NCBI GenBank assembly: GCA_902778455.1
Contig: CACYXR010000004.1
Coordinates: 124,001 to 188,000 of the forward strand
From: an uncultured Selenomonadaceae bacterium
GTDB lineage: Bacteria > Bacillota > Negativicutes > Selenomonadales > Selenomonadaceae
Direction: 5' to 3'
DNA length: 64,000 nucleotides
Shown in pieces: positions 17,789-25,099 of the stretch; position 1 is the first letter of the stretch, and each line of letters starts with the position of its first letter. The notes below the pieces were generated by a model. The model searched no databases and was not told where the DNA came from. It saw only the letters and a list, made by a program, of their open reading frames with translations. The position numbers and the translations under genes are program-made.

Positions 17789-18217
17789 TTATGCTCCCAC
17801 AGACTTCGCAACCTTGAGACGCACGATGGCGCGCTGGAGCGCAGCCTCGGCACGGCTGATGTCGATGTCCGTGTGTTTCAGCGGCGCGGAATTGAACTTC
17901 TTGATTCGTTCCTCGGCCCGCTGGTATGCTTTTTCCGCCCGCAGGACATCGATTTGAATCGGCGTCTCCGCACAGGACGCAAGCACCGTAATCTTGTTTT
18001 GCAGGACTTCCATGAAGCCGCCGCCGCACGCGATCAGCTCCTCACGGCCATCCTCGTGTTTCACGCGCATGGCGCAGGGGATGATGCTGGCGATCATCGG
18101 CAGATGGTTCGGCATGACGCCGATCTCGCCATCCTCCGCCTTGACGACGAGCATGTGGATGTCCGCCTGATAGACCACCGCGTCCGGGGAAACGACCTCC
18201 AGCTTGATCGTCGGCAT
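17789..18217 (-). CDS. atpC: ATP synthase F1 subunit epsilon
   Basis: A 142-residue central-stalk subunit. The N-terminal beta domain holds LEVVSPD, VKAEDGEIGVMPNHLPM and MRVKHEDGREEL; the C-terminal two-helix domain is Ala/Arg-rich (RAEKAYQRAEERI). The epsilon subunit couples rotation and can inhibit ATP hydrolysis. It is the last gene of the operon, 3 bases after atpD, with GGAGG in the end of atpD. A decayed relative of this gene lies at 4785-4889. Confidence 0.97.
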   Translation of the reverse strand: MPTIKLEVVSPDAVVYQADIHMLVVKAEDGEIGVMPNHLPMIASIIPCAMRVKHEDGREELIACGGGFMEVLQNKITVLASCAETPIQIDVLRAEKAYQRAEERIKKFNSAPLKHTDIDISRAEAALQRAIVRLKVAKSVGA

Positions 18218-18220
18218 AGG

Positions 18221-19645
<1,425 letters not shown>

Positions 19646-19666: not shown

Positions 19667-20878
19667 TTACTTCAATGCTTCCGCACCGCCCACGATCTCG
19701 GTGATCTCGCGGGTGATGTTCGCCTGACGTACCTTGTTGTAGAGCAGATCCAGCTTGCGCGTCAGCTCCTGCGCGTTGTCCGTCGCGCTCGACATTGCCG
19801 TCATGCGGGACGAAAGCTCGCTGGCCGCCGCCTGTAGCTGCGCCGCGTAAATCATCGTAACCAAATACTGCGGCAGCAGCGCGTTAAGCACGTCGTCCGC
19901 GTTCGGTATGAAGATGAACGGCTCTTCCTTGAATTCCTCCAGCGGCGTATCGTACGCGCTGAAATCAATGCTGTCCGTTTCTTCGTTTGGCAGCTCCGGC
20001 ATATCCGGGAGCGGCGGCAACGGGCCAAACCGCTCTTCCGCCTCTTTTGCTGCCTGGGCTTCCTTCGCTTTCGCCGCTTCCTCCGCGGCTGCTTCTGCCG
20101 CGGCCTCCGCGGCGGCTTTTTCCGCAGCCTCGTTCTTCGCGCGCTCCGCTTCGGCAGCCTCTTTCGCTTCCATCGCTTCGATCATTTCGTCGTAGCTCTG
20201 CGGCCCCGGCTGAGGCAGCTTCGCAAGCGCCGCCGCCTTCAAATGCGCGATGAACGCGCCCGCCTTGTCCAGTCTCGTCAGCTCGGCTTCCTCCGCCTCG
20301 CCGGTGATGCCCTCGAAAGGCAGGAGCTGGAACTTCTCCGGCACATTGACCATCGACGACACAAACCGCGCATAAATAATATGCACGGCGCTGTATTCGC
20401 CGGTTTCATAGCGCGTGGTCAGCTCCGCCGCGATTTGCTTCGCGATCTCGAAAGTGGGCCGCTCGCTGATGCCGAGATATTCCTTTACGATATGATAGCC
20501 CCGGTTGCGGAAATGTTCCTCGGTCTTTCGGCCGATGACGACAAGATCGGCTTTTTCCTTGTCGGGAATATGCCGAACCGCTTCCTTAAAAATATTCGAG
20601 GAATAGGCGCCCGCAAGACCTTTGTCTGCCGCGACGATCAGGAAAAGCTCCTTTTCCGCCGCGTCATAGGTCTCGAGAAGCGGGTGCTTGAAATCGGTGA
20701 CATTGGACGCGACGTTTTCCACGACCTCCGCCATCTTATCCGCATAGGGCTTGTTTGCGACAGCCGCCATCTGTGCGCGCCTGAGGCGCGCAGCCGCGAC
20801 CATTTTCATCGCCTTGGTGATCTGCTGGATGCTCTTTACGCTGCGTATTCTGCGGCGTATATCTTGCAAACTCGCCAT
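19667..20878 (-). CDS. atpG: ATP synthase F1 subunit gamma with large insertion
   Basis: A 403-residue central shaft where the family norm is about 285-300. The N-terminal helix (LQDIRRRIRSVKSIQQITKA) and C-terminal helix (SSATDNAQELTRKLDLLYNK) that form the rotor coiled coil are intact. Between LLPFEGI (about 185-191) and FIFIPNADDVLNALLPQYL (321-339) lie about 128 residues, where other bacteria have about 20. The extra part has a helical lead-in (202-220), a run almost purely of Ala, Glu and Lys (230-283, likely a long helix), and a Pro-rich acidic link (LPPLPDMPELPNEE). The frame is uninterrupted. It is probably a domain projecting from the globular part of gamma. Confidence 0.95.
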   Translation of the reverse strand: MASLQDIRRRIRSVKSIQQITKAMKMVAAARLRRAQMAAVANKPYADKMAEVVENVASNVTDFKHPLLETYDAAEKELFLIVAADKGLAGAYSSNIFKEAVRHIPDKEKADLVVIGRKTEEHFRNRGYHIVKEYLGISERPTFEIAKQIAAELTTRYETGEYSAVHIIYARFVSSMVNVPEKFQLLPFEGITGEAEEAELTRLDKAGAFIAHLKAAALAKLPQPGPQSYDEMIEAMEAKEAAEAERAKNEAAEKAAAEAAAEAAAEEAAKAKEAQAAKEAEERFGPLPPLPDMPELPNEETDSIDFSAYDTPLEEFKEEPFIFIPNADDVLNALLPQYLVTMIYAAQLQAAASELSSRMTAMSSATDNAQELTRKLDLLYNKVRQANITREITEIVGGAEALK

Positions 20879-23548: not shown

Positions 23549-23800
23549 TTACGCGATGAACGGATTCGCGAAGATGAGGATCAGGACAACGACGATAGCG
23601 ATAATAGGAATGGACTCAACAAGACCGCAGGATACGAGAGCGTTCGTGAACAGAGCATCCTTGACTTCCGGCTGGCGAACCGTGCCGTCCATCAAACGCA
23701 TCAGGACGCGGGAGTCACCATAAACAGCCATGATGATCGAAGTCATCGTGATGATAAGGATAACGATCAGGGACATGATAACGGGAGAAATAGTAGCCAT
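23549..23800 (-). CDS. atpE: ATP synthase Fo subunit c, unusual ion site and TM1
   Basis: An 83-residue rotor-ring subunit. The loop RQPE (42-45) and TM2 with ion-binding Glu62 followed by Ser63 (GLVESIPI) and the ending FANPF identify it. TM1 is atypical. The GxGxGxG packing motif is absent, replaced by bulky residues (SIIMAVYGDSRVLMRLMDG). Asp29 stands exactly 33 residues before Glu62, the spacing of Gln32 and Glu65 in Na+-binding c rings, and Glu62-Ser63 matches the Na+ signature. A double-carboxylate, probably Na+-type, site is inferred, like that known from Fusobacterium nucleatum. AGGAGG lies upstream. Confidence 0.93.
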   Translation of the reverse strand: MATISPVIMSLIVILIITMTSIIMAVYGDSRVLMRLMDGTVRQPEVKDALFTNALVSCGLVESIPIIAIVVVLILIFANPFIA

Positions 23801-23899: not shown

Positions 23900-24580
23900 T
23901 TACTCGTGATGATGCTCCTGCGCCGCCGGCGCGATATACACCAGCGAAAGCGTCGTGAAGATGTACGCCTGGATAATGCCGACCGCAAGGCTGAAGATAA
24001 CCCAGACTACATGCGGCGCCCAGTTCGCATACCAAGGAGCGAGATTCAGGATAATGATGATCAGCACCTCGCCCGCCAGGATGTTTCCGAAAAGACGGAA
24101 AGCCAGCGACGCGGGCCGTGCAAGCTCCTCAATGAGATGAATCAAGATGAAGGGAGCAAACGGCTCAAGGAAGTGCTTGAAATAGCCGATGCCGTTCCTC
24201 GCCACGCCGATGCCGTGATGAATCAGCATGGACATCGTGATTGCAAGGCCCAGCGTCGTATTCAAATCGTTTGTCGGCGACTCCATCGCCGGGAAAAGGC
24301 CCAGCCAGTTCGCGATCACCAGATACACGAACAATGTGAGGAAGATATGGGTCAGGGAACGCCCCGTCGGCCCAATCATCGTATTGATTTTATCCTCCCA
24401 CAGCTCGGCTATGGCCTCGATTGCGTTCTGCCACCCCGTGGGAACCTCCTTCAGGTTTCGCGATGCGAGAATCGCAATCAGAATGACGATGGCCATCGTG
24501 ATATAGTTCATGATGAGCGTCTCTTCATTGATGAGATAGCCGGCAAACTCCACGACTTCGCGATGACCGATTTTTTCCAT
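23900..24580 (-). CDS. atpB: ATP synthase Fo subunit a
   Basis: A 226-residue stator with about five to six membrane helices. The essential arginine is in LAFRLFGNILAGE, and TM5 has VVWVIFSLAVGIIQAYIF. It forms the ion half-channels against the c ring. The C-terminus ends in a His-rich EHHHE. GGGGAGG lies 6 bases before the ATG. Any Na+ coupling suggested by the c subunit would need matching residues here, which sequence reading alone cannot settle. Confidence 0.96.
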   Translation of the reverse strand: MEKIGHREVVEFAGYLINEETLIMNYITMAIVILIAILASRNLKEVPTGWQNAIEAIAELWEDKINTMIGPTGRSLTHIFLTLFVYLVIANWLGLFPAMESPTNDLNTTLGLAITMSMLIHHGIGVARNGIGYFKHFLEPFAPFILIHLIEELARPASLAFRLFGNILAGEVLIIIILNLAPWYANWAPHVVWVIFSLAVGIIQAYIFTTLSLVYIAPAAQEHHHE

Positions 24581-24613: not shown

Positions 24614-25012
24614 CTACGAAACCGCCTCCTCGCGGTTCTTCTTGATACGGGCCGCGATCAGGCAAGCGAACGCCGTCGCGAGAAACAGGAGATACGCCGC
24701 AATCGCCACCAGAAAAAACGGTTTTGAAACCTGCGCCGCAAGCCCCATGATCAGGCAAAGCGAACCCATGCGAATGAACAGCCCGTTCTGGAGCTGCGAG
24801 GCCGCTTTCTTCTCGTCGAAATGCCCGTCTTCCATGCGATTCGTCAACGTCCAGCAGAAAATGCCGCCCGCCAGATAGCCGACGAAAAGCCCGCCGATAA
24901 GCAGCCCCTTCCCCAAAAGGAGAAAGACCAGCGCACCCGCAAGCGTGCATCCCGCAAGAGCCTTCAGCGTCCAAACGCCGCCCCTGCCGTAGATTGATAA
25001 GAATTTTTCCAT
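24614..25012 (-). CDS. atpI: ATP synthase-associated AtpI-like membrane protein
   Basis: A 132-residue protein with four hydrophobic segments (ALAGCTLAGALVFLLLG; LLIGGLFVGYLAGGIFCW; LFIRMGSLCLIMGLAAQ; FLVAIAAYLLFLATAFACLI). It is first in the atp operon, the usual place of AtpI, which helps c-ring assembly or cation supply. ATG 25012 (MEKFLSIYG) has GAGGTGG just upstream; ATG 25033 is a weaker alternative. Sequence similarity within AtpI is low, so the name rests on topology and position. Confidence 0.75.
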   Translation of the reverse strand: MEKFLSIYGRGGVWTLKALAGCTLAGALVFLLLGKGLLIGGLFVGYLAGGIFCWTLTNRMEDGHFDEKKAASQLQNGLFIRMGSLCLIMGLAAQVSKPFFLVAIAAYLLFLATAFACLIAARIKKNREEAVS

Positions 25013-25069
25013 ATTCCACCTCGACGAAGTCATTCCATGCCCCCCGCCCGACGAAATATTTTCCGCCCT

Positions 25070-25099
25070 ATTATACTCCCAAGCATAAAAGCTTTGCAA
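25070..25099 (-). promoter_or_regulatory. Promoter of the atp operon
   Basis: On the minus strand TTGCAA (25099-25094), an 18-base spacer and a perfect TATAAT (25075-25070) lie about 58 bases before the atpI start. Confidence 0.75.

What the first reader, a model, noticed from the sequence alone, without database searches (positions are those of the whole stretch)
19925..20308. Insertion of about 120 residues in ATP synthase subunit gamma
Gamma is 403 residues instead of about 290. The extra part (about residues 191-318) contains a 50-residue Ala/Glu/Lys helix and a Pro-rich acidic link, in frame and between intact conserved blocks. It sits in the globular part of gamma, where the chloroplast and mycobacterial regulatory loops also lie. 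It could act as a ratchet, a brake on hydrolysis, or a contact to the c ring or epsilon. Paired with the odd c subunit it hints at a remodelled rotor.
Basis: partly seen in the sequence, partly recalled or inferred. Interest (0 to 1): 0.75.

Follow-up and report, generated by a model that had tools for sequence, protein, structure and literature searches.

The report
Helical arm inserted in ATP-synthase rotor
A group of gut and rumen bacteria (Selenomonadaceae) has added a roughly 110-130-residue helical arm to the rotating gamma shaft of its only ATP synthase, at the point where plants and cyanobacteria carry a regulatory hairpin and in step with an unusually altered membrane rotor subunit, which suggests a rebuilt rotor rather than a sequencing quirk.

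Summary
Gamma (window 19667-20878, minus strand) is 403 aa and the genome's only gamma. Residues 191-318 (19925-20308) are an in-frame insert between intact core blocks. All 10 congeneric genomes with a readable gamma carry it (382-413 aa), as do two sister genera (378-421 aa); two earlier-branching genera carry short acidic expansions (301, 308 aa); most other relatives have about 285 aa. dN/dS in the insert is 0.22-0.26, against 0.04-0.08 in the core. AlphaFold2 gives two helices (195-219, 229-284) and a disordered Pro-rich link.

The insertion point is that of the chloroplast/cyanobacterial hairpin, just before the residues that contact the c-ring in E. coli. The mycobacterial loop lies about 30 residues upstream, so that comparison fails.

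New here: the arm co-occurs with a c subunit whose TM1 glycine motif is replaced by bulky residues. Among 75 taxa, every loop of 30 aa or more (15) has at most 2 TM1 glycines; none of 49 glycine-rich taxa has one. This rests on one stepwise lineage plus one or two weak independent cases. Acidobacterial inserts at the same site have glycine-rich c, so the link is not universal.

Best reading: a structural foot coupling gamma/epsilon to an altered c-ring (0.4). A brake on hydrolysis (0.3) and tolerated drift (0.2) remain open.

The parts
19667..20878 (-). atpG, ATP synthase F1 subunit gamma, 403 aa
   Evidence: PF00231 1.3e-87; TIGR01146 285 bits over cut-off 194; only gamma in the genome
19925..20308 (-). 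insert, gamma residues 191-318
   Evidence: absent from solved gammas and from most relatives; same point as the spinach redox insert
20222..20296 (-). insert helix A, residues 195-219, core KAgaFIaHLKaAaLAkL conserved through the genus and sister genus g49
   Evidence: AlphaFold2 helix, block mean pLDDT 77-85 for residues 201-220; alignment
20027..20194 (-). insert helix B, residues 229-284, Ala/Glu/Lys-rich, variable in sequence
   Evidence: AlphaFold2 block mean pLDDT 92-93 for residues 241-270; sequence replaced in G004 and G247
19964..20026 (-). Pro-rich link, residues 285-305
   Evidence: block mean pLDDT 56-58; length varies between species
19919..19975 (-). conserved tail of the insert, residues 302-320 (DSIDFxAYxxPLEEFKEEP)
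   Evidence: kept, with substitutions, in the genus and in g49
19904..19918 (-). FIFIP, residues 321-325, equivalent of the E. coli strand ending Tyr207-Glu208-Pro; the Glu is I/L/V in this genus
   Evidence: alignment; E. coli Tyr207/Glu208 contact the c-ring (PMC5376962)
20067..20131 (.). imperfect 24-bp tandem repeat (2.7 copies) within the helix B coding DNA
   Evidence: Tandem Repeats Finder, score 74
23549..23800 (-). atpE, subunit c, 83 aa, TM1 glycine motif lost (VIMSLIVILIITMTSIIMAVYGDS)
   Evidence: PF00137 2.6e-8; TIGR01260 45.6 bits over cut-off 43.95; alignments
23711..23782 (-). c residues 7-30, TM1, one Gly where most relatives have 7
23900..24580 (-). atpB, subunit a, with clade-specific changes
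   Evidence: 15 positions near-invariant in the outgroup and changed across the long-insert members, e.g. K155R, P78H
18221..19633 (-). atpD, subunit beta; DELSEED region MEELSDADK nearly unchanged
17789..18217 (-). atpC, subunit epsilon, both Pfam domains present

Best explanation
The insert is a lineage-specific expansion of the gamma loop that in phototrophs became the regulatory hairpin. It forms a helical arm (a short conserved helix, a long Ala/Glu/Lys helix, a flexible Pro-rich return and a conserved tail) leaving gamma next to the strand that touches the c-ring. It most likely braces the gamma/epsilon foot against, and couples it to, a c-ring whose inner-helix packing has changed. Shown: the insert, its clade distribution, insertion point, purifying selection, and co-occurrence with a glycine-poor c TM1 and with changes in gamma's c-ring-contact motif and in subunit a. 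Inferred: that the c-ring is altered in size or shape, that the arm contacts it, and that this is its selected role.
For: Loop length and c TM1 change together step by step along one lineage: G032 (loop 32 aa, 2 Gly), G029 (39, 1 Gly), g13 (109-126, 1 Gly), genus plus g49 (113-143, 1 Gly). In 380 class genomes the window-type c (85 bits or more) occurs in 14, and all 13 with a readable gamma have an expanded loop. In 75 taxa, loop >=30 aa: 15 of 15 Gly-poor; Gly-rich: 0 of 49. Independent contrasts: r = 0.43 with TM1 residue volume, -0.38 with Gly count. A second, distant case, G057 (loop 70, c with 1 Gly). Insertion abuts the equivalent of E. coli Tyr207/Glu208, which contact the c-ring (PMC5376962), and that Glu is lost in this genus. 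Gly-to-Ala changes in TM1 can raise c-ring stoichiometry (PMC5376962).
Against: Mostly one evolutionary lineage; without it the contrast is weak (Gly r = -0.27, p = 0.03; volume not significant). Taxon-level counts overstate independence. Eleven Gly-poor taxa have loops under 30 aa, two of them of normal length (L109, L187). Acidobacteria have inserts at this site with Gly-rich c. The c17 ring of B. pseudomallei needs no gamma enlargement (PMC5376962). No structure of the complex; pTM only 0.69.
Confidence: 0.4

Rival explanations
1. Regulatory brake: as in phototrophs, the arm rises along the central stalk (or reaches the stator) and hinders rotation in the hydrolysis direction or stabilises MgADP inhibition.
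For: Exactly the insertion point of the phototroph hairpin, which extends along the stalk to the beta DELSEED loop and whose truncation raises ATP hydrolysis (PMC8390522; PMC8106487). The helices are long enough to reach it (25 and 56 residues).
Against: No sequence or predicted-fold resemblance to the phototroph beta-hairpin and no cysteines; DELSEED region almost unchanged; epsilon keeps its C-terminal helices; does not explain the linked change in c.
Confidence: 0.3
2. Tolerated expansion: the exposed loop grows by repeat slippage and is kept because it does little harm; the link with c is historical.
For: Low complexity, 24-bp repeats, variable length and replaced middle; dN/dS 3-5 times that of the core; this loop varies in several bacterial lineages.
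Against: dN/dS 0.22-0.26 is still well below 1; helix A and the tail motif persist across two genera; kept by every genome of the clade; stepwise parallel with c.
Confidence: 0.2
3. Assembly or partner role: the arm is a docking or chaperone-recognition element used in building the unusual c-ring/F1 junction, or is cut after assembly.
For: Acidic, flexible and helical; adjacent to the gamma/epsilon/c junction (inference).
Against: No processing site or partner identified; nothing tested here bears on it directly.
Confidence: 0.1

Closest known systems
Chloroplast/cyanobacterial gamma hairpin (spinach Cys240-Cys246 redox loop; T. elongatus 198-222)
   Same: Same insertion point, between the ..LLP strand and the strand leading to the C-terminal helix; occurs in enzymes with larger-than-average c-rings (c13-c15; PMC8106487)
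   Different: 30-40 residues of beta-hairpin there, about 128 residues of helix plus Pro-rich link here; no Cys; no sequence similarity; phototroph c keeps glycines (established knowledge, not tested here)
Mycobacterial gamma loop 166-179
   Same: Lineage-specific gamma insertion in the globular domain
   Different: About 30 residues upstream and about 14 residues long
Acidobacterial (Terriglobia) long gamma, found here
   Same: Insert at the same site, partly helical in prediction
   Different: Shorter, different sequence and fold, a second insert elsewhere, c with Gly-rich TM1
B. pseudomallei N-type c17 ring and alkaliphile c13 ring
   Same: Departure from the TM1 GxGxGxG motif
   Different: Gly to Ala there, Gly to Val/Ile/Leu/Met/Thr here; no gamma insert in B. 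pseudomallei (PMC5376962)
F. nucleatum two-carboxylate Na+ c-ring (PMC3692424)
   Same: A carboxylate in TM1 at the position of Glu32 (Asp in GDS) and the following Ser after the TM2 Glu
   Different: Family-wide in Negativicutes, not specific to this clade; Tyr70 and Thr67 equivalents absent

Membership tests
F-type ATP synthase gamma (PF00231 / TIGR01146) | N- and C-terminal coiled-coil helices and Rossmann domain; family score | tested here: met
   PF00231 294.6 bits, TIGR01146 285.4 over cut-off 194.45; AF2 helices 4-59 and 327-402; Foldseek TMt 0.87-0.90 to the best solved gammas
Phototroph-type regulatory gamma insertion | Insertion between the LLP strand and the pre-C-helix strand | tested here: met
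   spinach residues 230-~283 aligned to the same flanks
Phototroph-type regulatory gamma insertion | Beta-hairpin fold of 25-40 residues (and CDxNGxC in plants) | tested here: not met
   predicted helices, 128 residues, no Cys
Phototroph-type regulatory gamma insertion | Contact with DELSEED and effect on MgADP inhibition | not testable with these tools
   needs the complex structure and enzymology
Mycobacterial gamma loop | Short insertion at residues 166-179 | tested here: not met
   M. smegmatis match breaks at chain 164 / query 160; insert here starts at 191
F-type subunit c (PF00137 / TIGR01260) | Hairpin with RQPE loop and essential TM2 carboxylate | tested here: met
   RQPE and ES present; PF00137 34.4 over 24, TIGR01260 45.6 over 43.95
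Canonical c-ring packing | TM1 glycine motif GxGxGxG (a conserved packing feature, not required for membership of the c family) | tested here: not met
   one Gly in the 24-residue segment; motif positions read M/A-V-G-S
N-type ATPase | Alternate-type gamma and c (TIGR03323, TIGR03322) | tested here: not met
   85.4 vs cut-off 282.35 and 31.0 vs 130.85; standard a-c-b-delta-alpha-gamma-beta-epsilon order
Two-carboxylate Na+ c-ring | Carboxylate at position 32 plus Ser66, Tyr70 | tested here: inconclusive
   Asp at 32-equivalent and Ser at 66-equivalent present, Tyr70 equivalent is Ile

The most novel reading that the evidence does not exclude
A distinct F-ATP-synthase rotor type: a c-ring packed without the glycine motif (possibly unusually large or differently shaped) that needs an extra helical foot domain on gamma, evolved in steps in one Selenomonadaceae clade and perhaps again in a distant Negativicute.
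Probability: 0.3. Interest if true: 0.8.

Novelty: new variant of a known kind. Interest (0 to 1): 0.52.

Why it matters
c-ring stoichiometry sets the ion cost of ATP and is thought to be dictated by c alone, with gamma/epsilon fitting rings of many sizes. A clade in which gamma grew a foot in step with loss of the glycine packing motif would be a natural experiment on how rotor halves are matched, with living intermediates (loops of 32, 39, ~115 and ~135 residues). It also shows that the loop used by plants for redox control has been independently enlarged in non-phototrophs.

Tried and rejected
Assembly artefact or frameshift: rejected, insert open in all readable congeneric genomes. Second specialised gamma: rejected, only one in the genome. 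Same site as the mycobacterial loop: rejected. N-type ATPase: rejected. Universal rule 'insert needs Gly-poor c': rejected by Acidobacteria. Any long gamma counts: rejected, Pectinatus and genus g12 have a different insert after residue ~104 with normal c. Viral copies of c: none. G319, congener of G057 with a normal gamma, could not be used as a test because its c TM1 is broken by Ns. Literature searches with taxon terms (Selenomonas, Negativicutes) found no report of this insert; the library holds open-licence papers only. The primary paper on engineered c-ring stoichiometry was not held.

Full report
What is there. The window holds a complete F-type ATP synthase operon on the minus strand in the usual order a, c, b, delta, alpha, gamma, beta, epsilon. 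Gamma is window 19667-20878, 403 aa, ATG start, no internal stop. It is the only gamma in a 2.6-Mb genome rated 100% complete. Pfam PF00231 and the solved gammas match it in two blocks, residues 1-~190 and ~320-403. Measured between the invariant LLP187 and F321, the loop is 133 aa; in most relatives it is 11-19 aa.

Who has it. All 10 congeneric genomes in which gamma can be read carry the insert, open, with total lengths 382-413 aa; one 77%-complete genome gave no gamma. Two sister genera carry it: g49 (G247, 421 aa) and g13 (G022 and G252, about 378-397 aa). Two earlier-branching genera have short acidic expansions: G032 (301 aa) and G029 (308 aa). Most other Selenomonadaceae have 281-294 aa. 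The nearest named record, RUG12289 (L031, contig CACYUQ010000024.1), is an 'uncultured Selenomonadaceae bacterium'; I did not establish the genus name.

Anatomy. AlphaFold2 with 64 aligned gammas gives mean pLDDT 88 and pTM 0.69. It predicts helix A (195-219), helix B (229-284, block means 92-93 at residues 241-270), a Pro-rich link of low confidence (285-~305) and a short tail. Helix A (KAgaFIaHLKaAaLAkL) and the tail (DSIDFxAYxxPLEEFKEEP) are kept across the genus and in g49. The middle is not: it is replaced or shortened in G004 and G247, so the 56-residue helix itself is not the conserved core. The helix-B DNA holds an imperfect 24-bp repeat, a plausible route of growth. Pooled dN/dS in the genus is 0.24, 0.22 and 0.26 for three parts of the insert, against 0.08 and 0.04 for the flanking core: purifying selection, weaker than in the core. 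Few sequences in the folding alignment carry the insert, and the orientation of the arm relative to the core cannot be read from the output.

Where it sits. The cyanobacterial hairpin is there too (PMC8390522). The mycobacterial loop (166-179) is about 30 residues upstream. The strand right after the insert is the equivalent of E. coli Tyr207-Glu208, which contact the c-ring (PMC5376962). In this genus that Glu is I, L or V; in G022, G252, G247, G029, G032 and most of the family it is Glu.

The odd c subunit. Most of the family have about seven glycines in TM1 (e.g. VAAALVGAGITMGLAAIGAGIGDG). The window has one (VIMSLIVILIITMTSIIMAVYGDS). Among 380 genomes of the class the window-type c (85 bits or more) occurs in 14; the 13 of these with a readable gamma all have an expanded loop (G248's gamma is cut). 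In a 75-taxon table, all 15 taxa with a loop of 30 aa or more have two or fewer TM1 glycines, none of 49 glycine-rich taxa has such a loop, and 11 glycine-poor taxa have shorter loops. An alpha+beta tree nests the steps: G032 (loop 32, 2 Gly, mean volume 120), G029 (39, 1 Gly, 130), then g13 (109-126) and the genus with g49 (113-143, volume 135-140). Phylogenetic contrasts give r = 0.43 (volume) and -0.38 (Gly count); without this clade they fall to 0.17 (not significant) and -0.27 (p = 0.03). So the evidence is essentially one stepwise lineage, plus G057 in a distant family (loop 70, 1 Gly) and a weak tendency in family f33 (loops 14-39, 0-3 Gly).

Limits on the link. Terriglobia (Acidobacteria) have gamma inserts at the same site but c subunits with a glycine-rich TM1; one was folded and its insert is a strand plus two short helices, unlike this one. 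The c17 ring of B. pseudomallei goes with an ordinary gamma (PMC5376962). An insert therefore does not require a changed c, and a large ring does not require an insert.

Other subunits. In subunit a, 15 positions near-invariant in the outgroup are changed throughout the long-insert members (e.g. K155R near the RLFGN motif, P78H); epsilon has one, alpha seven, beta four, b eleven. The beta DELSEED region is nearly unchanged. This is compatible with remodelling on the Fo side, but rates were not normalised per subunit, so it is only a hint.

Mechanism. I favour a rotor-foot role (0.4): the arm leaves gamma at the c-ring interface and changed in parallel with c and with gamma's own c-ring-contact motif. 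That glycine changes in TM1 alter ring packing and can raise stoichiometry is established for Gly-to-Ala (PMC5376962, citing earlier work); that Val/Ile/Leu/Met/Thr do so here, and to what ring size, is inference. A brake on hydrolysis (0.3) is the obvious alternative because the phototroph hairpin at this point does that (PMC8390522). Drift (0.2) is supported by low complexity and raised dN/dS. Sequence alone cannot decide.

Known or new. As a gamma subunit it is an ordinary family member. As an insertion it is a new variant of a known kind: same site as the phototroph insert, but three to four times longer, helical, unrelated in sequence, and linked to a c subunit that lacks the TM1 glycine motif. 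I found no report of it in the open-licence literature searched.

Noticed in passing
L143, L144, L033 (G015, G021, Pectinatus frisingensis): A different gamma insertion of about 35-50 residues after the equivalent of residue ~104, in Pectinatus (g6) and apparently most of the large genus g12 (open frame 358 aa in G021; split matches in most g12 genomes), with normal glycine-rich c. A 2025 P. aeruginosa structure places the epsilon C-terminal helix in the gamma 96-132 cleft (PMC12796488).
   Followed up: partly
L172-L183 (family f33, Negativicutes): c subunits with TM1 glycines replaced by Ala/Ser/Asn/Cys, gamma loops of 14-39 aa, and the c-ring-contact Glu of gamma replaced by Leu or Met: a possible milder parallel case.
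   Followed up: partly
L145 (G057, family f22): Independent 70-residue acidic gamma loop with a glycine-poor c TM1; its congener G319 has a normal gamma, but its c is interrupted by Ns.
   Followed up: partly
L037, L041, L045, L047, L056, L077, L078, L080, L083, L084, L086 (Acidobacteria): Long gammas (345-380 aa) with inserts at the same site; those checked (L045, L056) have a second insert further upstream.
   Followed up: partly
window 24614-25099, minus strand: 161-aa hydrophobic ORF just upstream of atpB, in the position of atpI, with no Pfam match and no significant NCBIfam match.
   Followed up: no
window 23549-23800, minus strand: Asp at the position of the second ion-site carboxylate (position 32) in c; present in most Negativicutes examined, so possibly a two-carboxylate site in much of the class.
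   Followed up: no
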